Virus record (IMG/VR): IMGVR_UViG_3300028806_000133
Coordinates: 1 to 27,943 of that record
Origin: a virus
Reading direction: 5' to 3' (one strand)
Length of the DNA: 27,943 bases
Shown: in pieces, positions 2,183 to 27,943 of the stretch
Position numbering within the stretch: position 1 is the stretch's first letter
How the letters are laid out: each line of letters starts with the position of its first letter
Made by a program: the position numbers and the translations under genes
Notes under the pieces: generated by a model
Told to the model about the DNA's origin: nothing
The model's input: the letters and a program-made list of their open reading frames with translations, nothing else
Database searches by the model: none

Positions 2183-2860
2183 TTACAAAGTTCCTGCTTG
2201 CCGGAATCCCGGCTGAAATTCTTCCTTCTTGATTTTGACTCCCGAGGTAATCAGCTTTCGCGTGTATGCCTCAATCTCTGCATCGGTGTTCTGGACTTCG
2301 CCGCCCGATGAGTAGCTCACGCCTCTACGCACGCCATGCGTCTCGTCCCAGTGCTTCTCGAACGCCCGCTTCGATGCTTCTTCCTTTGCCGCTTCCTCGC
2401 TGAGGATTGCGTCTCGGATTTCCCACGTCTTGCGGATACGCCCCGTCCAAATTCCCTGCGCTGTCAGGAAGACCAGATCGGGAAAGATCGGGAGCCAACT
2501 GTGGTCTGGGTTCGCGAACAGATAGCAGCAAACATAGACGCCAAACTTCGGGTACGGCCCTGAGCTTAGGTATCCTTCGTCGTTGCACGTCTGGGATGCC
2601 CAGTAAGCAGGAGAGCCGAAGTGTCTACACGGAAGCCATCGCTCAAGAATCCAACACTTAGGCACGTACTTCTTGGCGTAGCGGTAACGATAGATTCCGT
2701 CATCCGCCCAGTAGCCGCCGTACATCACAATGCGTCGAGGAGCCCAGACAACCCTGAAGATGTTCTCTCCCCAAGGGTTCTGACCGAACTGCTTGAGCAG
2801 GTCTTCACACCACTCTGGGGGATTGATCCCCGAAATTGTCATGTCTCGTCGGTTGACCAT
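2183..2860 (-). CDS. Conserved-looking phage virion-module protein, 225 aa, unknown function
   Basis: The protein is rich in Trp, Tyr and Cys in its first 130 residues (NPWGENIFRVVW, then YRYRYAKKYVPKCWILERW) and ends in a charged, probably helical tail. The 'NP-x-G-E-N-x-F-R-V-V-W' opening recalls uncharacterised proteins encoded near phage capsid genes, but I cannot name the family. The ATG at 2860 has no SD; it sits 10 bases after an ATTA motif shared with other genes here. An alternative ATG is at 2842. It starts a two-gene transcript with the zinc-ribbon gene. Confidence 0.65.
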   Translation of the reverse strand: MVNRRDMTISGINPPEWCEDLLKQFGQNPWGENIFRVVWAPRRIVMYGGYWADDGIYRYRYAKKYVPKCWILERWLPCRHFGSPAYWASQTCNDEGYLSSGPYPKFGVYVCCYLFANPDHSWLPIFPDLVFLTAQGIWTGRIRKTWEIRDAILSEEAAKEEASKRAFEKHWDETHGVRRGVSYSSGGEVQNTDAEIEAYTRKLITSGVKIKKEEFQPGFRQAGTL

Positions 2861-2864
2861 CAGT

Positions 2865-2874
2865 GAGGAGTAAT
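2865..2874 (-). promoter_or_regulatory. ATTACTCCTC-type upstream motif, copy 2
   Basis: Minus strand ATTACTCCTC, ending five bases before the ATG at 2860. ATTA starts 10 bases upstream of the ATG, as before the gene at 20165. The gene has no SD. It lies between a terminator and the gene start, so a promoter-like role is inferred. Confidence 0.4.
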
Positions 2875-2938
2875 AGGGGTAGGCGGGGAAATCCCGTTCT
2901 GGCTACATAATAAGGATGGAATTTTGCAGTTTTATTGG

Positions 2939-2968
2939 AAAAATGAAGGGGTCGCTTTTGGCGACCCC
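2939..2968 (-). terminator. Rho-independent terminator after the fibre-type gene
   Basis: A perfect 8-bp stem (GGGGTCGC/GCGACCCC) with a 5-base loop is followed on the minus strand by TTCATTTTTCC. It lies about 50 bases past the stop of the 223-aa gene. Confidence 0.85.
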
Positions 2969-3019
2969 GTGCCCTCATAAAGCATTGAACGGGAAGGTGT
3001 AGTAATGGTTAATACTGGT

Positions 3020-3691
3020 TTAGTCGTGGATTGCGATGAGGTTTGCAGACCAAGTGTGCGGGATGCTGTCTGCGTTCGCAACGCTGATGATGACTCCAAC
3101 GCCGCCCGCTTGCTTCTGCAACGAAGCGATGTCGATGATGGCGGTGACCGCAGCGTAAGAACTCACTTCGCCGATTTCGATCTGAGCCACAACCGTGTAA
3201 TTGTTGTCCGCGAATGGCGTTGCCCAGTTGATGACGACCGCACCACTGTTCGTGGCGCTTGCCAACGATGTGAACGACGGTGAACGGTAAGTCTGTTGCT
3301 TTGCTGCTACAGCAGCGGCAGAGGCGGCGACCGCAGCATCAGCGTAGGCCGTAGTTGCAATGTCCGTGTTGTTGGTCAGCGGAGACTTGGTAGGAGCCGT
3401 GGGCGAACCAGTCAGAGCAGGGGAAGCCAACGGTGCCAGAAGAGCCTCAGCAGCTTCGGCACGATTCGTCTCCACGAGGATTGCGGCGTGATCGAAGGCC
3501 GTGGTCGCAAGCTGGGTAGTGTTCGTGCCGGGGGCCGCAGTCGGAGCAGTGGGGATACCCAAGAACCCCGGAGAGGTGAGGGGAGCTAATGCGCCCTCTG
3601 TCCCTGACAAGGCGTCGATTTCGTTCTGAAGGTACACCACCGCCTCAAGAGGCGACAGCGGGAAGAAGATTGATTCAGTGGATTGTGACAT
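3020..3691 (-). CDS. Fibre-type phage structural protein with two repeats, 223 aa
   Basis: Residues about 35-115 hold two copies of a repeat of the form 'A-P-L-x-S-P-x-x-x-G-x-P-T-A-P-T-x-x-P-x-x-N-T-x-x-x-A-T-T-A', well known in phage tail fibres and other thin virion fibres. An Ala-rich helical stretch follows, then a beta-rich C-terminal domain of about 80 residues that may be a receptor-binding or capping domain. GAGGA lies upstream of the ATG. The gene directly follows the major capsid gene across a terminator and has its own terminator. Next to the capsid gene, it could be a head fibre or decoration protein rather than a tail fibre; the sequence alone does not decide. Confidence 0.7.
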   Translation of the reverse strand: MSQSTESIFFPLSPLEAVVYLQNEIDALSGTEGALAPLTSPGFLGIPTAPTAAPGTNTTQLATTAFDHAAILVETNRAEAAEALLAPLASPALTGSPTAPTKSPLTNNTDIATTAYADAAVAASAAAVAAKQQTYRSPSFTSLASATNSGAVVINWATPFADNNYTVVAQIEIGEVSSYAAVTAIIDIASLQKQAGGVGVIISVANADSIPHTWSANLIAIHD

Positions 3692-10673: not shown

Positions 10674-10838
10674 TTAGTTCTCCTCAAGCTCCTCAAAAAT
10701 ATCGACCGAGAGAGGCGGGTAAGTTACCCGTTCTCCCCGTTTGTCGTTGTCTTTCTCCCGTCTGTTCTCTTCGCTCAGCTTCCTCAAACACTTCTGGCAC
10801 CATCCTTGCGAATCGCGGTTGCAATCTGGGCAGTCCAT
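10674..10838 (-). CDS. Small zinc-binding-type protein, 54 aa
   Basis: The ATG at 10838 overlaps the terminase stop (TAATG), the standard coupling in this genome, so I prefer it to a longer reading from 10886. The first 17 residues carry two CxxC pairs (CPDC and CQKC, seven residues apart), a compact zinc knuckle. The rest is charged and helical. Function unknown. Confidence 0.6.
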   Translation of the reverse strand: MDCPDCNRDSQGWCQKCLRKLSEENRREKDNDKRGERVTYPPLSVDIFEELEEN

Positions 10839-12547
10839 TAGCCCACCTTCGGCATTCTGGTACGGGGATGACGTGACCGAGACCACTGAGCAATCTGGCT
10901 CTGTTGTTTGGCACCCAACGTCCGCAATTCCTGCATCCTGCGGTAGTGCTCTACAAACAGGCGCATACTCTTCATCGGGGTAATGCCGCCCTGCGAGATG
11001 AGTTCCATCTTCTCTTTGTAAACTTCAGACGGCGGCTTCTCTCCCGAGGTGTGGTTCGAGTAGATGAAGTACCGAGTGCCGTCCAGCACATCGAGCTTTG
11101 GGTCGTCGCCTTCCTTCTTGATGTCCCCATCATGCTCGGGGTCAGAGGTAGCCCACGGAAGAGCTTCCAGTAACTCCACGCAGTCTTCGCTGATAAGCCA
11201 GTCAGGAACAACATTGCCTTCCGTCCACCCATCGAGCAACACGTTACGTTCCGCCAGTAGGGTGAACATCTGCCGCAGTCCGTTTGGACGGCTATACTTT
11301 TCCGTCTTACTGGGAATGGGGCGAGGCACACCATCAGCCACAAACACATCGCCGATTACACGGGCTCGGGTGCGAGAACCTTCGCCAAACGTTTCTGGCG
11401 AGAGGTAGATTTTGCTGATGCGCTTCTTCAGCTTATCGTCGCCCTCCATCTCATCGAGAACCGCTCCAGCGAGTCCGCGTTCGCTCAACCCCTTCTTGAG
11501 CAACTCCCTGAATGTCAGAACGAAGATGTGCTTCTCTCCGTTTTGCAGAGGGAGTTCCACAAGCGTGTTCCAGCAGACGTAAGCGTGGTGCACCGTACCT
11601 ACGTCGATACCCAGACCCACGGGCATCCACCACTGGCGTGCCATCAAAGTCAGAACTTTGTCACGCGGAATGACAGTGATGTCTTTGTCGTAGACATCGA
11701 AATACATGCCCTCGAAGCCCGTCCACTTGCCGTATTTCCAAGCGTTGCGAATCGCCTTGGGCTGGGCGTCCAGCATCTTGCGATACGCCTTGCCTGCGGG
11801 TGTAGTGGGGCCGTAGGCTGGGTTGTCATCCAAGATGGCGGGGATGAAGTAGTAATCACCTGCGTCGTACAGGATGTCGAGGTTCTTCGGACATGCCTTC
11901 GGACAATCCGCACCAAACAGGTGCCGCAATACGTCGGCACCCACACCACCGGGGTTACTCAATCCCTTGATCTGAGCAATAACTGGGCTGCCCTTCCAGT
12001 CATGCGTGATAGTTGATCGGGCGGAACCAGTGATGAACGACCACCACTTGAACGGGATTTCGCACCACTCGTCGAAGGTGACCGTCAGGAATTCTCCTGA
12101 CAGATATTTGCGGGCAGCGGCTTCGTCGTTAACCGAGGCGAAGTGAATCACGCTGCCGTTGTCGAACTGTAGCCGTGGGGAGACCGCGCTGTCGGTGAAA
12201 CGTCCACGCAAACGTTCAGGCAGTTTCAGGAACTCGGCGATGATGGTGCGGCGTAACTCACCCATCGTGCGGCGGAAGATGATCTGTTGGCAGCCGGGAA
12301 CTCGATACGCTCGGAATAGGTTGTCAAAGACCGCGCAAAAAGTTTTACCGTTGCCCCGTTGTCCCGCGAAGAACGTGTAAGGGCTCACGGATTCCAGATA
12401 CTCTAACTGTCGAGCATGAGGGAATCCTTTGGGCGTCATAAGTCGGAGCCCAGCTTCAGTCCCGTCTCGATTTTCGTATACCCTGTACTTCGGCCCAAGG
12501 TCACCCGCTTGGTCGAGTACGTAGGGCGAATCTAAGTCGATAGCCAC
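10838..12547 (-). CDS. terL: Terminase large subunit (intact), 569 aa
   Basis: TerL powers DNA packaging and cuts the concatemer. The ATPase has Walker A GQRGNGKT (residues 62-69), an Arg-rich 'F-R-R-T' strand (91-94), Walker B LTVTFDE (154-160), and a coupling-type 'SNPGG' (197-201). The nuclease domain begins near residue 310 with LGIDVGT (Asp315), the first acidic residue of an RNase H-like fold, and continues to about 500. The start is GTG, one base after the stop of the preceding gene. This is the complete terminase of the window; a second, incomplete one lies at 19101-20165. It sits upstream of the portal operon. Confidence 0.9.
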   Translation of the reverse strand: MAIDLDSPYVLDQAGDLGPKYRVYENRDGTEAGLRLMTPKGFPHARQLEYLESVSPYTFFAGQRGNGKTFCAVFDNLFRAYRVPGCQQIIFRRTMGELRRTIIAEFLKLPERLRGRFTDSAVSPRLQFDNGSVIHFASVNDEAAARKYLSGEFLTVTFDEWCEIPFKWWSFITGSARSTITHDWKGSPVIAQIKGLSNPGGVGADVLRHLFGADCPKACPKNLDILYDAGDYYFIPAILDDNPAYGPTTPAGKAYRKMLDAQPKAIRNAWKYGKWTGFEGMYFDVYDKDITVIPRDKVLTLMARQWWMPVGLGIDVGTVHHAYVCWNTLVELPLQNGEKHIFVLTFRELLKKGLSERGLAGAVLDEMEGDDKLKKRISKIYLSPETFGEGSRTRARVIGDVFVADGVPRPIPSKTEKYSRPNGLRQMFTLLAERNVLLDGWTEGNVVPDWLISEDCVELLEALPWATSDPEHDGDIKKEGDDPKLDVLDGTRYFIYSNHTSGEKPPSEVYKEKMELISQGGITPMKSMRLFVEHYRRMQELRTLGAKQQSQIAQWSRSRHPRTRMPKVG

Positions 12548-13325: not shown

Positions 13326-13497
13326 ACAAAAACTCTTCCATCAACTCGTTCAACTTGCTCTTCGTGATGTTGCCTTTCCTCAGGTTCTTCTCGATGACCC
13401 GTTTGTGCTCTGGGTCAACAGGCAGACCATCGGCGAGTCGTCGCATTCGCCGTTTGAGTTCCGCTTTCACCTTGCGGTAAGTGGACTTCGGAGGCAC
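13306..13497 (-). CDS. Small basic protein after groEL, 63 aa
   Basis: Start codon is GTG, overlapping the groEL stop (TAGTG), so it is translationally coupled. The protein is very basic in its first 20 residues (STYRKVKAELKRRMRRL) and has a second helix ending in acidic residues. Possibly nucleic-acid binding; the family is not recognised. Confidence 0.55.
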   Translation of the reverse strand: MPPKSTYRKVKAELKRRMRRLADGLPVDPEHKRVIEKNLRKGNITKSKLNELMEEFLYGTEEA

Positions 13498-15029
13498 TAC
13501 TTCTCCACGGTTTGTGTTATCAACTCAGTGAGTAGCATCTGGCAGGCAACTGAAGCTGCATTGCGGAGACTGCTCTTGATAACCTTGGCGGGGTCGATAA
13601 CACCCATTTCAATCAGATCGCCGTACTTGCCCGTGAGGGAATTGAAACCCGCAGAAGTAGTCAGGGCTTTGGTGAGTTCCGTCTCACCGTATCCCGCATT
13701 CTCCAGAATTTGCAGAGCGGGACGGCGTAACGCCTTGCTCACGATACCTTCGGGTAACATCTGGGCTATCCGGGCAAGCGCCATTCCTCCACCGACAACG
13801 ATCCCGTCTTCGAGCGCACAGCGGGTTGCGAGGCACGCATCTTCGCAGCGGGCCTTCTTGTCCCCGAGTTCGATCCCGGTCTGTGCCCCAAGACGCAGGA
13901 TGGTGACTCCTCCCGTAAGCTTTGCCAGACGCTCCTGTAGGCGTTCTTGTTCAAGCTTCGTGGGGCTTTGGGTGAGGAGCCCTCTGATTTCTTCGATTCG
14001 TTTTTCAATCGCTTCCTTCTTTCCGAAGCCGCCAATAATGCGAGTGTTCTTCGACGTGACTACAACCTTGGCAGCACGTCCGAGAGCCTGTGGCGGAAGC
14101 TTCGACAAGTCCAATCCCAACTCTTGCAGGATGGCTTGTCCTCCTGTTACGGCGGCGATGTCGAGTAACAGGTCTTTGCGGTGCCCAAGATTCTCAGGCA
14201 GCTTGACGGCACAGACAGCGAAAGTGCCCTTCAGCTTGTTCATGACGATAGTCGCCAACGCCTCGCCTACAACGTTCTCGGCGATGATGAGCAGCGGATT
14301 GCTGCTCTTGGCGATTCCTTCAAACAGCGGTACGAGACCCTGCAAGGAACTGATGGTTCGGTCGATGAGCAGAATCACGGGTTGCTGGAACTCCACAATC
14401 TGGCGTTCCGCATTGTTTACAAACGCACCGCTGAGGTATCCCTCGTCGAACTGCATCCCTTCCTGCCGCTCAATCGTAGTCTCGTTGGACGGGGAGTCTT
14501 CTACGGCAACTAAGCCGCTTGCTCCCGCCTTACGCATAGCATCAACAATAAGTCCGCCGAGCACGGGGTCGTTGTTCACGGCGATAGTTGCGACTTGCTT
14601 CATCATGTCGCCGCTGACATTGACCTTCGTGCGGTCGATTTCCGCACAGGCGAATTCAACGCCCTGCTCAATTTCTTTTTTGACGGCAACTACATTTTTG
14701 ATCTTCTGAGCCTCTAATCCATGTTTGAACAGGGAGTAGGCGAGTACCACGGCAGCCGAAGTGCCATCCCCAGCGTCCGAGGCTGCCTTCTCTGAGGCTG
14801 CACGGACTGCACGGTTCCCTGTGTCGGGGAAGCCTTCAAGGTAAAAATTGCGGGCGATGGTCACGCCGTCACGGGTGCTCATCGGACAGATCGGATGACC
14901 CGGAGCGTAGTCGATGAACGTATTACGTCCCATCGGCCCCATGCTCTTGCCAACTGCGATGCTCAGTTGTTCTGCACCTTCGAGAAGGTGATTGCGGGCT
15001 TCTTCACCGAATGCATTCTGTGTACCCAT
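13497..15029 (-). CDS. groEL: Phage GroEL-type chaperonin (Hsp60), 510 aa
   Basis: Clear group I chaperonin: 'F-G-E-E-A-R' start, 'M-G-P-x-G-R-N' (P-loop-like, about residues 31-36), 'DGVTIAR', 'AGDGTSAAVVLA' (ATP/Mg site), 'CEDACLATRCALEDGIVVGGGMAL' with the ATPase Asp, and 'YGDLIEMGVIDPAKV'. It is shorter than bacterial GroEL (about 545 aa), diverged in the apical domain, and ends TQTVEK with no Gly-Gly-Met tail. It is coupled by TAATG to the GroES-like gene. Phage chaperonins are known in several large phages and probably fold phage proteins such as the capsid subunit. Whether it forms one or two rings cannot be seen. Confidence 0.95.
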   Translation of the reverse strand: MGTQNAFGEEARNHLLEGAEQLSIAVGKSMGPMGRNTFIDYAPGHPICPMSTRDGVTIARNFYLEGFPDTGNRAVRAASEKAASDAGDGTSAAVVLAYSLFKHGLEAQKIKNVVAVKKEIEQGVEFACAEIDRTKVNVSGDMMKQVATIAVNNDPVLGGLIVDAMRKAGASGLVAVEDSPSNETTIERQEGMQFDEGYLSGAFVNNAERQIVEFQQPVILLIDRTISSLQGLVPLFEGIAKSSNPLLIIAENVVGEALATIVMNKLKGTFAVCAVKLPENLGHRKDLLLDIAAVTGGQAILQELGLDLSKLPPQALGRAAKVVVTSKNTRIIGGFGKKEAIEKRIEEIRGLLTQSPTKLEQERLQERLAKLTGGVTILRLGAQTGIELGDKKARCEDACLATRCALEDGIVVGGGMALARIAQMLPEGIVSKALRRPALQILENAGYGETELTKALTTSAGFNSLTGKYGDLIEMGVIDPAKVIKSSLRNAASVACQMLLTELITQTVEK

Positions 15030-17357: not shown

Positions 17358-18284
17358 TTACTTATTCTCCTTGAAAAATACGGTTTGGTTGGTGACATCA
17401 ACTGCGAAAACTTCGCATTTGTCACCAATCTTGAATCTGTCAAAGTTCGATCCAACGTAAGCGCCAATCGTGTGGAAGGGTGGTTCGGGACCAACCGTGC
17501 CGCCGTTCACGAAATGCGGGTCTTGAGTTTCCAGACGGTCGTGCTCCGCTGTGATCTGCGGCACCACGGCGGGCGTGGGGGTGGATTGCCGATGAAACTC
17601 CTCATGCTGTTTCAGGATTGAGCCTTCGGGCTTGGGACGCTGGTCGTCGTAAAAACCGCAGGCGGGGGCTGCGGGCTTTCCTGCTGGATACTTCAAAGAC
17701 TTAGCGAGAGCCTCACGTCCACCAGCGACTTCGAGAACCCGACCTATCTGCTTGGTCTGAGCGTCAGGCGCGGCGGGCGGGGCGTCTTCGGCTTCGGCTT
17801 TTGCGCGGTTGTAGCCCGAATCGTAAGCTTTGGACATGTGAGTAGCGTCATACTTCCCAACCAGCTTCCGCTCGATGGCGGCGAGTCTTTCGGACAGAGC
17901 CTTGGTGATGGAGTAGTCCCCACCCTGTTCCAAGGCTTCAAGGTGATTGTCAATCTCCCCTTCGTCGCCGACCTGCGACTCAAGGGCGGCGAGGCGGTCT
18001 TCCAGCTTGGCTACGGCGGCTGCCAAACCTTGAATCCAGTCTTGGTGACCGGGGAACCGCTCCGCGAACAGATCGGTCTCGCGTTGGTTCTCCAGCACGG
18101 CGAGGCGGTCTTCGATAAGTTGCCCCGCTTCCTTGGCATCCGCCAATTCTGCTAAGTACGGGGCATCAACAAGACGCCCATTGTTATTCTCGTCAAAGGT
18201 GACGACGGCCCCATCTGGGAACTTGTCGCTCAATTCGGGACTCACGGTCTTGAGTTGCTCGGGCGTTAAATGGATTTCGGACAT
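17358..18284 (-). CDS. Coiled-coil phage protein sharing a repeat with a neighbour, 308 aa
   Basis: Residues 55-145 contain several heptad runs (LIEDRLAVLENQ, VAKLEDRLAALESQ, ALSERLAAIERK). A Pro/Ala-rich segment follows, then a C-terminal globular part (IGAYVGSNFDRFKIGDKCEVFAVD). Near residue 238 the peptide AVVPQITAE is encoded by a 31-base block that recurs exactly in the 115-aa gene at 18655. Starts are coupled by TAATG. Function unknown; a structural or scaffold accessory is likely from position. Confidence 0.6.
   Translation of the reverse strand: MSEIHLTPEQLKTVSPELSDKFPDGAVVTFDENNNGRLVDAPYLAELADAKEAGQLIEDRLAVLENQRETDLFAERFPGHQDWIQGLAAAVAKLEDRLAALESQVGDEGEIDNHLEALEQGGDYSITKALSERLAAIERKLVGKYDATHMSKAYDSGYNRAKAEAEDAPPAAPDAQTKQIGRVLEVAGGREALAKSLKYPAGKPAAPACGFYDDQRPKPEGSILKQHEEFHRQSTPTPAVVPQITAEHDRLETQDPHFVNGGTVGPEPPFHTIGAYVGSNFDRFKIGDKCEVFAVDVTNQTVFFKENK
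17542..17572. repeat. 31-bp exact direct repeat, copy A
   Basis: Identical in sequence and orientation to 18890-18920, 1,348 bases away. It begins TGCTCCGCTG and ends CCACGGCGG on the plus strand. Both copies are read in the same frame and encode VVPQITAE. Confidence 0.95.
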
Positions 18285-18655: not shown

Positions 18656-19002
18656 TACTTTGACTCCTGATTGAAGACGAGGCGATTGAACTGGACGAAG
18701 GTATCGACCTGTTCGCCAAGGGACGGAACGCCGTTCTCGTCCATGATGATAGTGTGCCCAGCGTGCTTAGGTTCTTCACCGCACAGGCAGAAAGATTGGA
18801 ACGGCTCGTTGATGAGGGCGGCAAGCTCGTCGAAATCAAGCCAGTAGTCAAGTTCACCATCGTTGCGGTCAGCAACCATGTCCTTAACCTGCTCCGCTGT
18901 GATCTGCGGCACCACGGCGGCTTTGCGCTCACGCTTGGCCTGAGCTTTTGCCAAGGCGTCTGGGGCACTTACGAAGGCGTCGAAGGTGAAGAGCTTGGGC
19001 AT
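18655..19002 (-). CDS. Phage protein sharing a repeat with a neighbour, 115 aa
   Basis: Starts MPKLFTFDAFVSAPDAL, then a basic helical linker, then VVPQITAEQ encoded by the second copy of a 31-base repeat, and a C-terminal part with two Cys (FCLCGEEPKHAGH) that could be half of a zinc site. Its ATG overlaps a TAA (TAATG) that closes an open stretch in frame with the truncated terminase, so it was originally coupled to an upstream gene. Function unknown. Confidence 0.6.
   Translation of the reverse strand: MPKLFTFDAFVSAPDALAKAQAKRERKAAVVPQITAEQVKDMVADRNDGELDYWLDFDELAALINEPFQSFCLCGEEPKHAGHTIIMDENGVPSLGEQVDTFVQFNRLVFNQESK
18890..18920. repeat. 31-bp exact direct repeat, copy B
   Basis: Matches 17542-17572 base for base. 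The flanks differ on both sides, so the match is limited to these 31 bases. Confidence 0.95.
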
Positions 19003-19100
19003 TATTCTTTCACGAAGCCCAGCAGACGGCGGGCTTCTTCCTTGGTGATAATTTCGTCGCTAATCAAGCCTGCGAGGTCCCCAGGGCGACGTAAGGGGGC
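19002..19100 (-). pseudogene. Cut-off 3' end of a gene, in frame with the truncated terminase
   Basis: After the TGA that ends the terminase ATPase (19103-19101), the same frame stays open for 32 codons and ends at a TAA that overlaps the next ATG (TAATG), the usual gene joint here. The peptide contains DLAGLISDEIITKEEARRLL, which looks like real coding sequence. I read it as the remaining C-terminus of a gene whose body was lost or replaced at the 29-bp repeat. Stop read-through is a less likely alternative. Confidence 0.5.
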
Positions 19101-19110
19101 TCATACTGGG
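19082..19110. repeat. 29-bp exact direct repeat, copy B (at terminase truncation)
   Basis: Identical to 20025-20053, offset 943 bases. It begins CAGGGCGACG and ends CATACTGGG. It contains the in-frame TGA that ends the terminase ATPase, because here the repeat is read in another frame than in copy A. Confidence 0.95.
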
Positions 19111-20165
19111 TTGTCGAAGACGGACGAGAAGATGTAGGCGTAGCGGCTCGGATCGTACTTAGTGATCTTGCCGTGGGTGTACTTTTTGGCGATTTCCATG
19201 TTGCGGACGAGTTCGCCCTTCTCGTTCTTCTTGCCGATGAACAGAGCCTCAATCCAATCCGAGCCGATGCCTCCGGGGTTACTCGCCAGAGCCATGCACG
19301 GAACCACGGGCTTGCCATTCTTGTCGATCTTGATCGGGCAGCGGTTCTGGAGGGTGAGGTACTGGAACATCTCGTAAGTCCACTCTGTCGCCTCATCGAT
19401 TCCGATGAAGACGTACTCACCACCGTTGTAGTCGTATACGTCATGCTCATGCTGACAAGCACCAAACCACAGCTTGGAGCCGTTGGGGAAAGTCACAACG
19501 TGATCGTTACGGTTCCAGTTGCGAGGCCCACCGTAAACAGCGGATGGAATCTTCTTGCTGAAGTGATCCATCAGGGTTTTGTTCAAGTCTGGGAAGGTTC
19601 GGCGAAGCAACAGGACGTGGCAGCCCGGAATGTTCTGGCAGAAGGTGATAGCTTCCCACAGCAGGCAGAGGCTCTTGCCGCCGCCCTTGGCTCCCCCGTA
19701 CAGGCGGAAGATGGCGGGGTTAGAGTGGAAGGCTATCTGTTTCTCGTGCGGATCGTAAGCGAGTTTGTTGTCTACCCAGACGGCGTAAGGATTGTGGCCT
19801 GATGGCTTAGTGACACTGCACGTTTCGGGGCATGTATACGACGCTACGCAGTTCGGAATATCAGTACCATGCTCCCGAGCATAGGCGAGCGCATCCTGAA
19901 ACTTTGACCCTGCGGGCTTTGCGACAGTGGCACCCTCTTGAACGGACCTGATAGCTGGGCCGACCGGCTTGCTGTAATAGTCCACCGCGTCTTGGGCAGC
20001 CTTACCCTCAAGGGGACGCTCCAGCAGGGCGACGTAAGGGGGCTCATACTGGGAGGAGGGAATCTTGGCAACATGGACGACTTTATAGCCGACCGAGGAC
20101 AGGGAGTTGAGGGAGCTTAGGTCGCCGAAGTCGAAGCCAAGCTCGATATATTCGTAGGTGGTCAT
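19101..20165 (-). CDS. Second terminase large-subunit ATPase, chimeric and truncated, 354 aa
   Basis: Residues 1-52 (MTTYEYIELGFDFGDL ... YVALLERPL) resemble the small DUF4177 domain. A linker follows, and from about 135 a TerL ATPase: Walker A GAKGGGKS (158-165), 'L-L-L-R-R-T' (185-190), Walker B YVFIGIDE (251-258), and 'SNPGG' after it. The protein stops at DNPV, where TerL proteins normally go on to the nuclease domain, so it is ATPase-only. The stop lies inside a 29-bp repeat whose other copy encodes SQYEPPYVAL at residues 39-47. No SD is present; an ATTACTCCTC motif precedes the ATG. It is probably a recombinant remnant; a role as separate ATPase cannot be excluded. Confidence 0.8.
   Translation of the reverse strand: MTTYEYIELGFDFGDLSSLNSLSSVGYKVVHVAKIPSSQYEPPYVALLERPLEGKAAQDAVDYYSKPVGPAIRSVQEGATVAKPAGSKFQDALAYAREHGTDIPNCVASYTCPETCSVTKPSGHNPYAVWVDNKLAYDPHEKQIAFHSNPAIFRLYGGAKGGGKSLCLLWEAITFCQNIPGCHVLLLRRTFPDLNKTLMDHFSKKIPSAVYGGPRNWNRNDHVVTFPNGSKLWFGACQHEHDVYDYNGGEYVFIGIDEATEWTYEMFQYLTLQNRCPIKIDKNGKPVVPCMALASNPGGIGSDWIEALFIGKKNEKGELVRNMEIAKKYTHGKITKYDPSRYAYIFSSVFDNPV
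20025..20053. repeat. 29-bp exact direct repeat, copy A
   Basis: Matches 19082-19110. Here it encodes the end of the DUF4177-like domain. Flanking bases differ on both sides. Confidence 0.95.
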
Positions 20166-21007: not shown

Positions 21008-21685
21008 TTAACGCTTGTCGATGAGTAGCGTCTCATCAGTCCGGGGTGAGGTAGGTTGGTTGTCTGGCTCACTGGCTACACTGAGCTTGATGTGAGCGGC
21101 TTGCAGCCGACTCGATACCCAACTGTTGCTCTTACCAACAAGCCTCATGGTCTGCTCTACGTTCTGCGGCCCGATGTCAGCGCCTCGACCGAAGCCGTAG
21201 CTCAACTCGACTACTGTGCGTTCACTATCTGTGAGGTTGGCTCGGTTGAATAGCTTCTCAACGTCTTGCTGTGCTTCGAGTTGCGCCGATGTGTCGTCTG
21301 CTGTCAGTGCTGCTGTGGTGTGAGCTAAGCAATCGCTGTCCCCCACCAGTTCGTCTACGCTGTTCTCTGTCTGTTGTCTGCGCTTACGTTGTCCTTGCTC
21401 ATCCTTGAGCAGGCTATTGACGATGCAGGTCTTGAGATACGCGGGATTCTTGGCTTTCTTGGAGTGCCGTCTTTGGGCGCTCAACACAGCGCAGTAAGCC
21501 GTCTGGTACATGTCATCACGATAGTCTGAGCCACGTCCCTCGAAGATGAAGTCGTTGATCGAGTAGGTTCGGATGAGCTTGTTCACCAAGCCCCAGATGA
21601 ACTTGTCCATGTTACCGAGGGCTGTGGGTGGTTTGTTTGCTTGTGGATTGAAAGGTTTAAGTCGGGGCATCGTTGCGGTAGCCAT
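21008..21685 (-). CDS. Phage sigma-70-like RNA polymerase sigma factor, 225 aa
   Basis: Residues about 25-110 resemble sigma region 2 ('F-I-W-G-L-V-N-K-L-I', 'D-Y-R-D-D-M-Y-Q-T-A-Y-C-A', 'A-Y-L-K-T-C-I-V-N-S-L'). Residues about 155-205 resemble region 4 ('L-T-D-S-E-R-T-V-V-E-L-S-Y-G-F-G', then a helix-turn-helix ending 'S-N-S-W-V-S-S-R-L-Q-A-A'). It would redirect host RNA polymerase to phage promoters. The frame is open upstream through the end of the TnpB element to 21790; I took the ATG at 21685, outside the element, although it has no SD. Removing the predicted element joins this frame to the 55-aa gene at 22875, so the original gene may have been longer. Confidence 0.75.
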   Translation of the reverse strand: MATATMPRLKPFNPQANKPPTALGNMDKFIWGLVNKLIRTYSINDFIFEGRGSDYRDDMYQTAYCAVLSAQRRHSKKAKNPAYLKTCIVNSLLKDEQGQRKRRQQTENSVDELVGDSDCLAHTTAALTADDTSAQLEAQQDVEKLFNRANLTDSERTVVELSYGFGRGADIGPQNVEQTMRLVGKSNSWVSSRLQAAHIKLSVASEPDNQPTSPRTDETLLIDKR

Positions 21686-21719
21686 TAGTGCACCAGCGCG
21701 ATCACGACGCCGATACCGA

Positions 21720-21900
21720 TTGATGCTCCCAGAGTAAAACTCTGGGATTCCTGACTTGCCGATGTTAGACATAGGCAACCTCGTGGGCACATCCTGCCCC
21801 GATGTTGAGGGTGTTGATAGCGGCGTTTACGTCTCTATCGTGCGAGGCTCCACAGTCTCTACACACCCAACTTCTTACCGACAATCCCGCAAGTCCTGTA
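21720..21900 (-). ncRNA. Probable TnpB guide (omega) RNA region
   Basis: In this family the guide RNA covers the 3' end of tnpB and the right end, and the guide is read from the flank just past TCAA. Here that flank begins TCGGTATCGGCG, in the start region of the sigma gene. The 5' limit given is approximate and no RNA data exist. Confidence 0.35.
21728..21746 (-). other. Right-end hairpin of the TnpB element
   Basis: Perfect 8-bp stem CCCAGAGT/ACTCTGGG with a 3-base loop, GAAT at its foot and TCAA eight bases beyond. It would also form the 3' part of the TnpB guide RNA. Confidence 0.8.
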
Positions 21901-22811
21901 GGACCAGAGGGTCTCCCACATTCGTTACAGGTCTTGGTGGAATCTTTGGAAGCAGCCTCGATGAATGTCGTACCGCTTGTGGGCGACTTGTACGACAGCA
22001 TCCCTCGAATCTGTGCGTGGGCTGAACTGCTCACGCTCTTCCCAAACTTCTTGGCTATTCCTTTGTGGTTATCCTTGCTCCACACGATGAGCACGTTTTC
22101 TGAAACTAATCGTGTCGTTAACTTGTGATTTCTATCTTTCTTGCGGTTGGCAACCCGTTCCTGAATGCGTGCAGCCAAATGCTTGTCGTGGCCACGTTGT
22201 GCTTGTGCCAATCGTTCTGCACTGGCTTCCAACTCCCGTGGGTGTTCGATGATTTCTCCGTCCGAAGTTGTCAGTAGATTCGAGAAGCCTGAGTCTATTC
22301 CAATTTCTCCATACCCAGTCCGCTCAATCTTCTTTGGCTCTGCATCTATGAACAGGCAGAGATACCAACCCGATGCACGTTTGACCATGCGACCGCACTT
22401 GATTTTGCCATCTGGAATGTCCATCTTGTAGAAGCGGACACTACCCAGACTCGGCAGAGTGATGCGATTACCTTTCGGAGCCTTGATGGGGTCAGGAAAC
22501 GGAATGCTGGTGAGTTTGTTCCGCATTCCTTTAAGACGTGGCTTGCCAGCAATCTTCTTGAAGCAACGCTTCCACGCATCGTGCACAGTGCAGAGAACTC
22601 CCTGCAACGTGTGGCTAGGAATCTCCAGCCGCTCTCCGTGGTTCGCCAGTAGGTTCTGGAAATCGTTCTTGGAGAAATAGATTTTGTCCTTGGCGTTGAG
22701 TTCTATCTTTCTGACTGCAAAGTTGAACACAGAGCCGAGAATAGGAAGCCATGACTCAGCAATTCTTTCTTGTGTCTTGCACATCCGAAGTTTTAGTTGT
22801 GTCTGAATCAC
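21765..22811 (-). CDS. tnpB: TnpB-family RNA-guided nuclease (OrfB), possibly altered catalytic site, 348 aa
   Basis: TnpB proteins cut DNA next to a short target motif under guidance of RNA from the element end. Seen here: the RuvC-I motif GIDSG (Asp173), a four-Cys zinc ribbon (295, 298, 317, 320), and HDRDVNAA with RuvC-III Asp327. The central motif, usually 'E-D-L-N-x-K-G', reads SKDNHKG (245-251), so the usual catalytic Glu is absent. Some TnpB groups have a shifted Glu; Glu285 could be one, so loss of cutting is not certain. The start is GTG after a strong AAGGAGG. The element flanks a sigma factor gene. Confidence 0.9.
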   Translation of the reverse strand: MIQTQLKLRMCKTQERIAESWLPILGSVFNFAVRKIELNAKDKIYFSKNDFQNLLANHGERLEIPSHTLQGVLCTVHDAWKRCFKKIAGKPRLKGMRNKLTSIPFPDPIKAPKGNRITLPSLGSVRFYKMDIPDGKIKCGRMVKRASGWYLCLFIDAEPKKIERTGYGEIGIDSGFSNLLTTSDGEIIEHPRELEASAERLAQAQRGHDKHLAARIQERVANRKKDRNHKLTTRLVSENVLIVWSKDNHKGIAKKFGKSVSSSAHAQIRGMLSYKSPTSGTTFIEAASKDSTKTCNECGRPSGPTGLAGLSVRSWVCRDCGASHDRDVNAAINTLNIGAGCAHEVAYV

Positions 22812-22845
22812 GGTATCCTCCTTTCTCCATCAAAGTCGTCGCTTA

Positions 22846-22864
22846 CCCAGATTAAAAATCTGGG
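22846..22864 (-). other. Left-end hairpin of the TnpB element
   Basis: Perfect 8-bp stem CCCAGATT/AATCTGGG with a 3-base loop. It matches the right-end hairpin in 17 of 19 bases; the two changes compensate each other in the stem. Confidence 0.8.
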
Positions 22865-22874
22865 ATTGCGCTCC

Positions 22875-23042
22875 TCAACTACCGTTCACGATGCGCTGTA
22901 CCTCGCGCTCCATGTCCTCGATTTCCTCGATCTTTGCTTCATGCTCGTGGCAGTAATCGCCTTGGCAGGGTCGATCACATGTCACAGCAACGTCGCCCAC
23001 AACCAACTCGTACTTGCACATGCTGAAGCTTTTGATAGTCAT
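22875..23042 (-). CDS. Small Cys/His-rich protein, 55 aa, 3' end inside the TnpB element
   Basis: MTIKSFSMCKYELVVGDV opens the protein, which carries Cys9, Cys22, Cys26, Cys31, His32 and His34, a likely zinc site, and then an acidic helix (EAKIEEIEDMEREVQRIV). It lies three bases after the lysozyme stop. The predicted TnpB-element boundary falls in codon 53; the last codons (NGS, stop) are then supplied by the element. Without it, the frame runs on into the sigma factor gene. It is thus either a small zinc protein or the cut-off N-terminus of a longer one. Confidence 0.65.
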   Translation of the reverse strand: MTIKSFSMCKYELVVGDVAVTCDRPCQGDYCHEHEAKIEEIEDMEREVQRIVNGS

Positions 23043-24013: not shown

Positions 24014-24076
24014 GATCGTGCAGGCAGTGCATTTGCTCGATACAACCTGTCCGTGATTACAGAAAAACTCGTTCAT
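24011..24076 (-). CDS. Micro-ORF, 21 aa, zinc-knuckle-like
   Basis: The peptide begins MNEFFCNHGQVVSSKC and ends TACTI. Cys6, His8, Cys16 and Cys19 could bind a metal. Its ATG overlaps the preceding stop (ATGA) and GGAG lies upstream, so translation is plausible despite the size. Confidence 0.4.
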   Translation of the reverse strand: MNEFFCNHGQVVSSKCTACTI

Positions 24077-27213: not shown

Positions 27214-27304
27214 GAGTTACCTAAGTAATGGCACTTCGGTGCCATAGACAGCAAAACTACAATGCGATACAATGTAGTTAGTTGCTGGGAGGCAACCATG
27301 AATG
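27214..27304 (+). promoter_or_regulatory. 91-bp expression cassette, copy A
   Basis: In order: GAGTTACCTAAGTAA (a decayed copy of a gene end), a hairpin ATGGCAC-TTCG-GTGCCAT (27228-27245), TAGACA (27245-27250), 17-base spacer, TACAAT (27268-27273), GTTGC-TGGGAG-GCAAC (27281-27296; the SD GGGAG is in the loop), then ATGAATG. It matches 27769-27859 over its whole length. Confidence 0.85.
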
Positions 27305-27487
27305 GAAGTAAACCTGAGGAGCGGTGATAAGGTGAAGGCCAATAGCAAAATCTATCGCTACATGTATTTTCCAATGCCCGATGGGACAGATGGCTACTGG
27401 ATTGCCCCAAGCGGATTGTCCGTATACCACCCCAACACTCTTGCCAAAATCGAAGCAGCCATCGCTGCTGGAAAGCTGGTGCGCTAA
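27302..27487 (+). CDS. Small plus-strand protein, 61 aa
   Basis: The second ATG of ATGAATG gives the long frame (MEVNLRSGDKVKANSKIYRY ... AAIAAGKLVR). The first ATG (27298) opens only nine codons, which might be a control peptide. The product is a small alpha/beta protein of unknown function. Its stop overlaps the next start (TAATG). Expressed from cassette A. Confidence 0.65.
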   Translation: MEVNLRSGDKVKANSKIYRYMYFPMPDGTDGYWIAPSGLSVYHPNTLAKIEAAIAAGKLVR

Positions 27488-27783
27488 TGGAAACCGAACT
27501 GACGTACACGCAAGAGCAGAAGTTGAAAGCCGCCGCCAAACGATTCAAATTCACCGACGCCGAGCTTGTTGACGGCGCTGCCTGTGTTGGATGGGATAAC
27601 CACAGCGGCGATGATTGGGTCACCATCAACGCTAACGGGGAGCCTTGGGACTATATCCCCTACGACAAGTTGAAGAAAACCATCCAGCGGATACTCGGTC
27701 GTCCGAGGATGGATTTGGTCTGGGACGGAGAAGAACGGGAATGGCATGACCCGCTCTGGGAAGCCGCCGAGTTACCGAAGTAA
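27487..27783 (+). CDS. Small plus-strand protein, 98 aa
   Basis: Coupled by TAATG to the 61-aa gene. Begins METELTYTQEQKLKAAAKRF; then Trp/Asp-rich central part (GWDNHSGDDWVTINANGEPWDY) and a helical end (KKTIQRILGR, WEAAELPK). No family recognised. Its last codons and stop (GAGTTACCGAAGTAA) lie at the start of cassette B and resemble the decayed gene end before cassette A. Confidence 0.65.
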   Translation: METELTYTQEQKLKAAAKRFKFTDAELVDGAACVGWDNHSGDDWVTINANGEPWDYIPYDKLKKTIQRILGRPRMDLVWDGEEREWHDPLWEAAELPK

Positions 27784-27859
27784 TGGCACTTTCGTGCCAT
27801 TGCCAGACTAACTACAATGCGATACAATGTATCTAGTTGCTGGGAGGCAACCATGAATG
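27769..27859 (+). promoter_or_regulatory. 91-bp expression cassette, copy B
   Basis: Same order as copy A: gene end, hairpin AATGGCAC-TTTC-GTGCCATT (27782-27801), TTGCCA (27800-27805), 17-base spacer, TACAAT (27823-27828), SD in a GTTGC/GCAAC hairpin loop (27836-27851), ATGAATG. Confidence 0.85.
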
Positions 27860-27943
27860 AAAATCTCCAACACGACAGACATCCCGACAACCACCATCCG
27901 TGAGTTAGTTAGGTTCTGTCTACCCGAGAACGTAGATGTGAAG
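27857..27943 (+). CDS. Plus-strand phage protein, N-terminus only (runs off the window)
   Basis: The second ATG of ATGAATG gives 29 codons to the window end: MKISNTTDIPTTTIRELVRF, then CLPENVDVK. The 'I-P-T-x-x-I-R-E-L-V-R-F' start resembles a phage protein family sometimes labelled metallopeptidase-like; this is a weak match. The first ATG (27853) would give 16 codons only. Confidence 0.55.
   Translation, partial: MKISNTTDIPTTTIRELVRFCLPENVDVK

What the first reader, a model, noticed from the sequence alone, without database searches (positions are those of the whole stretch)
21720..22884. TnpB-only IS200/IS605-type element with IS608-like ends, splitting a phage locus in frame
Seen: two matching perfect hairpins flank tnpB; the right end has GAAT at the hairpin foot and TCAA beyond it, exactly the IS608 guide/cleavage pair. 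Applying the same pairing rule to the left foot (CAAT) predicts cleavage after TGAA, which is present at 22888-22885. Removing 22884-21720 joins codon 53 of a Cys-rich gene to the open frame of the sigma factor with no stop, giving one 289-codon reading frame. Inferred: the element entered a gene coding an N-terminal zinc part plus a sigma factor, and the predicted TnpB target is TGAA followed by TCGGTATCGG.
Basis: partly seen in the sequence, partly recalled or inferred. Interest (0 to 1): 0.75.

Follow-up and report, generated by a model that had tools for sequence, protein, structure and literature searches.

The report
Jumping gene that restarts interrupted genes
A small phage-borne TnpB transposon lands after TGAA, in several cases right behind a gene's start codon, and its right end carries a ribosome-binding site and start codon that usually read on, in frame, into the gene downstream, so the insertion may do little harm.

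Summary
Relatives support TGAA: 13 of 16 distinct sites with an independently found left hairpin have it 14-17 nt before the hairpin foot, and in one relative, removing the element restores a conserved start codon. The "zinc part fused to a sigma factor" reading is not supported. G001, 99.7-99.8% identical in its two main aligned blocks, has the same element and left flank, but 24 unrelated bases replace the 34 after the right end; there the joined frame stops at TAATG before the sigma gene. A TnpB guide would lie in that stretch, so the two alleles carry different predicted guides.

New here: the right end carries a Shine-Dalgarno-like motif and ATG (window 21782-21770), open through the hairpin into the downstream gene. 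Of 38 family right ends, 30 have such a leader. Among 21 with a clear downstream frame, 16 leaders match it (expected 7.0; P=7e-5; permutation p=0.005). None of 8 unrelated phage TnpB elements has an SD-linked one. I propose a translational restart that makes insertion tolerable. Expression is untested; five sites miss. The TnpB lacks the canonical RuvC-II glutamate in 79 of 79 aligned rows.

The parts
21720..22884 (-). Whole TnpB-only IS200/IS605-type element, 1165 bp
   Evidence: Ends fixed by comparison with other copies
22885..22888 (-). Target and left cleavage tetranucleotide TGAA in the left flank
   Evidence: 13 of 16 distinct sites with an independently found left hairpin have TGAA 14-17 nt before the hairpin foot
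22865..22868 (-). Left guide tetranucleotide CAAT at the hairpin foot
   Evidence: Pairing rule as for IS608 GL (rule recalled; IS608 tetranucleotides); sequence
22846..22864 (-). Left subterminal hairpin, 8-bp perfect stem
21765..22811 (-). tnpB, 348 aa, GTG start, AAGGAGG upstream
   Evidence: Pfam, PHROGs, NCBIfam; SD; RuvC D173 and D327 kept, canonical Glu position is S245
21778..21782 (-). Shine-Dalgarno-like GAGGT of the right-end leader
21720..21772 (-). Right-end leader frame (ATG 21772-21770, overlapping the end of tnpB) open through the right end: MSNIGKSGIPEFYSGSI, then into the sigma frame
21747..21750 (-). Right guide tetranucleotide GAAT
   Evidence: IS608 GR
21728..21746 (-). 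Right subterminal hairpin, 8-bp perfect stem; predicted omegaRNA scaffold
21720..21723 (-). Right cleavage site TCAA, last bases of the element
21686..21719 (-). 34 nt after the right end (predicted TnpB guide region); replaced by 24 unrelated nt in G001/L003
22875..23042 (-). 55-aa Cys-containing ORF cut by the element (end of codon 53, last two codons and the stop come from the left end)
21008..21685 (-). Sigma-like gene downstream (weak sigma70-ECF match, below cut-off)
   Evidence: NCBIfam TIGR02937 2.8e-7, 30.3 bits against 42.9

Best explanation
This is a non-autonomous IS200/IS605-type element (TnpB only, IS608-like ends) in a phage. It is likely moved by TnpA supplied in trans and inserts after TGAA. 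Shown: its right end carries an SD-ATG leader, overlapping the end of tnpB, that stays open through the hairpin. Across the family this leader is usually in frame with the downstream gene. Inferred: ribosomes finishing tnpB, or starting at the leader, read through the right end and restore expression of the interrupted gene as an N-terminally extended protein. Because NTG-AA is a start codon plus a Lys/Asn codon, and the right end finishes ATC-AA, an element landing just after a start codon hands translation back in the same phase. In the window the leader enters the sigma gene directly. In G001 it runs 8 codons past the end and stops at TAATG, which could couple to the same sigma gene. The bases after the right end should also be the TnpB guide, and they differ between the two alleles.
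For: Ends and target. Leader: 30 of 38 right ends have an SD-linked ATG open through the end; leader lengths 44, 47, 50, 53, 56, 59 keep one frame in 25 of 30. Frame match 16 of 21, expected 7.0, P=7.3e-5, permutation p=0.005; with genes of at least 100 codons 14 of 16, P=1.2e-5. Off-phase leaders follow their gene in 4 of 5 clear cases: L176 0/0, L185 0/0, L146 0/0, L187 1/1, but not L192. L142: 13 of 13 relatives with no right end in front of the gene have a start-like codon at that position (7) or one codon upstream (6); the joined site restores TTG-AAA, and the leader MPRDPSRNPQALAMGRF joins K2 in frame. No SD-linked leader in 8 of 8 unrelated phage TnpB elements whose right end I could read. 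Guide difference.
Against: Five clear misses: L169 (=G001), L182, L192, L206, L167. The loosest thresholds give 17 of 27, P=0.0015, p=0.018. 32 of 79 TnpB rows had no recognised right end and were not tested; of two of these looked at afterwards, L200 had no clear gene and L201's only ATG (39 nt before the end) is out of frame with its 144-codon gene. L187's gene keeps its own ATG 11 nt beyond the end, so its match needs no leader. Control L270 has one ATG at 40 nt, without an SD. The P value treats sites as independent, though the elements are related by descent and the window and G001 are two alleles of one site. No expression data exist. The window's own GTG-AA is inside the 55-aa ORF, not at a gene start.
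Confidence: 0.6

Rival explanations
1. Ordinary TnpB-only IS: the leader is an accident of a conserved tnpB tail and omegaRNA sequence, and the frame agreement reflects only that TGAA sites at start codons share one phase.
For: The leader ATG overlaps or closely follows the tnpB 3' end; phase 2 is commonest for both leader and gene, and permutation of gene phases alone already gives 11.0 matches of 21.
Against: Observed 16 exceeds that (p=0.005); 4 of 5 off-phase leaders with a clear gene sit with a gene of the same phase; an SD precedes the ATG in 30 of 38; 8 of 8 unrelated phage TnpB elements lack an SD-linked leader.
Confidence: 0.28
2. One reading: the element split one gene that coded a Cys-rich part fused to a sigma factor.
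For: One open 289-codon frame on removal.
Against: G001 has a stop at TAATG in the joined frame and a good SD (AAGGA, 9 nt before ATG) for a separate sigma start, which the window allele lacks. The joined frame has about a one-in-four chance. No fused homologue was found.
Confidence: 0.08
3. TldR-like: a nuclease-dead TnpB used as an RNA-guided repressor, whose guide changes with the sequence after the right end.
For: No Glu at the canonical RuvC-II position in 79 of 79 aligned rows; two guide sequences at one site.
Against: D173 is kept in 79 of 79, D327 in all 78 rows that cover it, and D247 is invariant, so an alternative acid may serve; ends are intact and copies sit at many sites; no TGAA followed by at least 9 of the first 12 guide bases was found in the window or G001.
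Confidence: 0.12

Closest known systems
IS608 and the IS605 group of IS200/IS605 elements
   Same: Subterminal hairpins, GAAT/TCAA right guide and cleavage pair, insertion 3' of a tetranucleotide kept in the left flank, tnpB gene (PMC5934647, passages)
   Different: Target TGAA with left guide CAAT, no tnpA in this copy, SD-ATG leader through the right end, no canonical RuvC-II Glu
IStrons (group I intron plus IS200/IS605 or IS607)
   Same: A mobile TnpB-type element with a device that makes insertion into genes harmless (PMC4227781, abstract and passages)
   Different: IStrons splice at the RNA level; here no Rfam family reached its gathering score in the window and the proposed device is translational restart
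[quoted passage not shown]
   Same: Phage-borne TnpB relative with an altered nuclease site (TldR seen in search listings only; details recalled)
   Different: Here transposon ends and target are intact and copies sit at many sites
Fanzor and pro-Fanzor
   Same: RuvC-I DPG motif in 64 of 79 aligned family rows
   Different: No Glu six residues before the zinc finger as defined in PMC10711439 (passages); the window itself has DSG; some relatives carry a tnpA C-terminal signature directly upstream, taken as the Y1 type from memory and not as IS607

Membership tests
IS200/IS605 (IS605 group) | Subterminal hairpins at both ends with guide tetranucleotides at the 5' foot | tested here: met
IS200/IS605 (IS605 group) | Insertion 3' of a fixed tetranucleotide, no target duplication | tested here: met
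   TGAA at 13 of 16 distinct sites with an independently found left hairpin; exact restoration of a start codon in L142. No empty site was found for the window's own copy
IS200/IS605 (IS605 group) | TnpB with RuvC and zinc finger | tested here: met
IS200/IS605 (IS605 group) | Y1 TnpA in the element | tested here: not met
   No room and no such ORF beside tnpB between the ends of this copy. A tnpA C-terminal signature lies directly upstream in 9 of 79 rows; so this is a non-autonomous derivative
IS200/IS605 (IS605 group) | Transposition and omegaRNA from the right end | not testable with these tools
   needs experiment or RNA-seq
TldR | RuvC catalytic residues lost | tested here: inconclusive
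   Glu absent in 79 of 79 rows, both Asp kept, D247 invariant
TldR | Transposon ends lost | tested here: not met
IStron | Group I intron in the element | tested here: not met
   no Rfam match at gathering threshold in the window
Fanzor / pro-Fanzor | DPG plus Glu six residues before the zinc-finger CxxC | tested here: not met
   window has DSG; position 288 is S in 63 of 79 rows and E in none

The most novel reading that the evidence does not exclude
A family of phage-borne TnpB elements has a dual-purpose right end. As RNA it is the TnpB guide scaffold; as mRNA it is a leader cistron that restarts translation into the gene it interrupts, with frame corrected by small indels after insertion. 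Recombination at the same boundary can exchange the TnpB guide between near-identical phages.
Probability: 0.5. Interest if true: 0.78.

Novelty: new variant of a known kind. Interest (0 to 1): 0.62.

Why it matters
It would be a second way, besides IStron splicing, for TnpB elements to sit inside genes without killing them, and could help explain persistence in compact phage genomes. It sets up a direct conflict, because the same bases would serve as guide RNA scaffold and as coding sequence. The two alleles at one site show natural replacement of a predicted TnpB guide, which makes guide turnover testable.

Tried and rejected
Gene fusion of the 55-aa part and the sigma factor: rejected as unsupported. 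Empty-site search in IMG/VR with both guide sequences and with the 55-aa and sigma proteins: only the four known element-bearing contigs. More distant phages reached through the portal protein: 0 of 9 (portal 38-60% identical) gave a match to the 55-aa protein at E<=1, with no positive control in that set; 3 of 13 (those 9 plus four at about 27-30%) gave a weak sigma match at E<=0.1. L187/L188/L189 as proof of guide swapping: not used, because shared repeats in metagenomes can give assembly chimeras. G001 against window is less easily so explained, since identity resumes after the replaced stretch, but I had no reads. Source of the 34 or 24 nt: no convincing match in held sequence. Fanzor-type alternative Glu: spacing does not fit. 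The structure model (pLDDT 71.5) matches TnpB structures but was not used to place the active site. Literature: searches listed no report of a right-end translational leader in IS200/IS605 elements; that is absence from those listings only. PMC7290912 was looked at in passages: 'start codon' and 'in-frame' do not occur in it.

Rows dropped before the frame test: of 79 TnpB rows, 32 had no recognised right end. Thirteen more were left out: 8 duplicates (L004, L170, L171, L179, L189, L193, L020, L184), 4 with ambiguous or wrongly found ends (L183, L145, L209, L150) and 1 pseudogene (L195). Four further right ends were added (L159, L160, L167, L168), giving 38; the window and L169 (G001) are two alleles of one site, and L187 and L188 share a left flank. 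Seventeen of the 38 then fell out as unclear frame or no SD-linked leader ATG. The control right ends were chosen by eye; L268 and L269 could not be read.

Full report
What is there. The window is a whole IMG/VR virus record of 27943 bases. On the minus strand, 22884-21720 is a 1165-bp element holding one gene, tnpB (22811-21765, 348 aa). Family libraries agree: Pfam Cas12f1-like_TNB and OrfB_IS605, PHROG transposase, NCBIfam guided_TnpB above its cut-off. The model of the protein (pLDDT 71.5) is closest to a solved TnpB structure (Foldseek E=1.2e-16 to 8h1j). The IS608 tetranucleotides GAAT/TCAA and AAAG/TTAC are in PMC5934647 (passages); the position-by-position pairing rule used to go from CAAT to TGAA is recalled.

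Ends confirmed by relatives. Viral scans gave 20 and 77 loci with relatives of this TnpB, and the genome scan gave 17. Flanks diverge at TGAA on the left and TCAA on the right. When left hairpins were found without using TGAA, 13 of 16 distinct sites had TGAA 14-17 nt upstream of the hairpin foot. Of the other three, L175's true left end also follows TGAA, while L203 and L232 do not show it. TGAA occurs 128 times in 27943 bases of this strand. In L142 (Thiobaca trueperi), joining the flanks restores TTG-AAA-TTC-ATC. Of 38 genomes of its family searched, 14 had the gene, one being L142's own. In the other 13 no right end precedes the gene; 7 have a start-like codon (ATG, GTG or TTG) at exactly that position and 6 one codon upstream.

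The fusion reading fails. Four other contigs carry the same insertion: L002, L003 (in G001), L004 and L005. L003 differs from the window at only 5 places in 7.1 kb. One of these is the replacement of the 34 nt directly after the right end by 24 unrelated nt, after which identity resumes at TAATGGCT. L004 shares two flanking variants with L003 (window positions 24059 and 21556-21555) but has the window's 34 nt. So this short stretch appears to have been exchanged on its own; which allele is older is not known. In L003 the joined frame ends KWPDKDGQ-stop, with TAATG overlapping the sigma start and AAGGA 9 nt before that ATG; in the window allele no such motif precedes it. TAATG recurs at other gene starts of this genome. 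The exchanged stretch is where a TnpB guide lies, so the two phages are predicted to carry different guides.

A leader through the right end. In the window ATG 21772-21770 overlaps the end of tnpB, follows GAGGT, and opens MSNIGKSGIPEFYSGSI through the hairpin and on into the sigma frame. In L003 the same leader runs 8 codons further and stops at TAATG. I tested whether this is general. Of 79 TnpB rows, 47 had a recognised right end; after dropping 13 and adding 4, 38 right ends were examined. Thirty have an SD-linked ATG 40-62 nt before the end, open to the end. Twenty-five of these 30 are in one phase although their lengths vary by threes (44 to 59). For 21 the downstream gene frame was clear (longest frame at least 50 codons and 1.5 times the next). 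Leader and gene agree in 16, expected 7.0, P=7.3e-5. Shuffling gene frames among elements gives 11.0 on average, p=0.005. With genes of at least 100 codons it is 14 of 16 (P=1.2e-5, p=0.0014). With the loosest cut it is 17 of 27 (P=0.0015, p=0.018). Dropping both the window and L169 gives 15 of 19 (P=6.1e-5, p=0.0043). Misses at the main setting: L169, L182, L192, L206, L167. Of five off-phase leaders with a clear gene, four go with a gene of the same phase (L176, L185, L146, L187) and L192 does not; L187's gene has its own ATG 11 nt downstream. Two ends that my hairpin rule had missed were looked at afterwards: L200 has no clear gene, and L201 would be a miss.

Controls. Of ten unrelated phage TnpB elements fetched, eight had a right end I could read. 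Six had no ATG open through it within 66 nt; L262 had ATGs at 7 and 19 nt and L270 one at 40 nt. By the rule used for the family, 1 of 8 (L270) has an ATG at 40-62 nt and 0 of 8 has one with an SD.

Why start codons. TGAA after A, G or T makes NTG-AA, a start codon plus the first two bases of a Lys or Asn codon; the right end finishes ATC-AA, so an element landing there returns the same phase. ATG-AA or TTG-AA at what look like gene starts is seen in L142, L172, L177, L178, L160 and L229; by the motif list an SD precedes it in L142, L172 and L229, and also in L145 and at the window's internal GTG. In 15 loci 8 of 438 TGAA lie at SD-supported starts of ORFs of at least 80 codons, and in the window 1 of 128 lies at a start in my gene list. 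The 24 left junctions listed were built from motifs that contain TGAA, so they illustrate rather than test.

The protein. In 79 aligned rows, some of them near-duplicates, RuvC-I D173 is invariant. The canonical RuvC-II Glu position is S, T, L or V in all 79, D247 two residues on is invariant (79 of 79), and D327 is present in all 78 that cover it. Position 245 aligns with the RuvC-II Glu of the best solved relative. E285 is Glu in 66 of 79 but is not at the Fanzor spacing. Whether it cuts DNA is open. In cells the family seems rare: 2 of 369 genomes sampled from one class and 1 of 395 from one phylum had a match at E<=1e-60, in each case including the genome used as centre; this is not directly comparable with the viral scans.

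What is shown and what is inferred. Shown: ends, target, allele replacement between assembled contigs, leader and its frame statistics. Inferred: trans-mobilisation by TnpA (a signature lies directly upstream in 9 of 79 rows), guide function of the flank, translation of the leader, and the benefit to the element. I found no report of such a leader in the search listings. IStrons make insertions harmless by splicing (PMC4227781, abstract and passages), which is the nearest idea in function.

Change after checking: the confidence of the best explanation went from 0.62 to 0.60, because L192 as an off-phase mismatch and the added look at L201 are against it.

Noticed in passing
L160 (about 2850-3120), L168 (about 1317-1539): Miniature elements with both ends but no full tnpB (left end 240 and 191 bp before the right-end motif) and their own flank sequence. 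L160's contig also holds a full-length family tnpB (L012/L176), so it could supply a second guide in trans.
   Followed up: partly
L187, L188, L189: Near-identical tnpB with the same 3-kb left flank but different right flanks (L187/L188), or the same right flank but different left (L188/L189; L189 lacks the tnpA end seen in L188): recombination through the element, or assembly chimera.
   Followed up: partly
L204, L213, L217, L219, L221 downstream of tnpB: More distant TnpB copies without a recognised right hairpin, where the place of the TCAA end reads TCATG, putting a start codon at the former boundary; possibly domesticated.
   Followed up: no
window 10838-12547 and 19101-20165: Two large-terminase-like genes; both match phrog_979 and the second is short. 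A perfect 29-nt direct repeat pairs 19082-19110 with 20025-20053; L002 lacks about 20140-19808.
   Followed up: no
window 17378-17950: About 570 nt here are replaced by about 53 nt in G001 and L002; one copy of a perfect 31-nt repeat (17542-17572 and 18890-18920) lies in it.
   Followed up: no
window 13497-15029: Phage-encoded GroEL (phrog_5725, 3.8e-111).
   Followed up: no
window 27214-27307 and 27769-27862: Two 94-nt direct repeats, 88% identical, each with an ATG of a short ORF near its end: possibly duplicated promoters.
   Followed up: no
L175 4091-4513: Another family member sits in front of a phage lysozyme gene; its best annotated phage match is in a Tunturiibacter phage (53.6%), at most a weak hint at an acidobacterial host.
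   Followed up: partly
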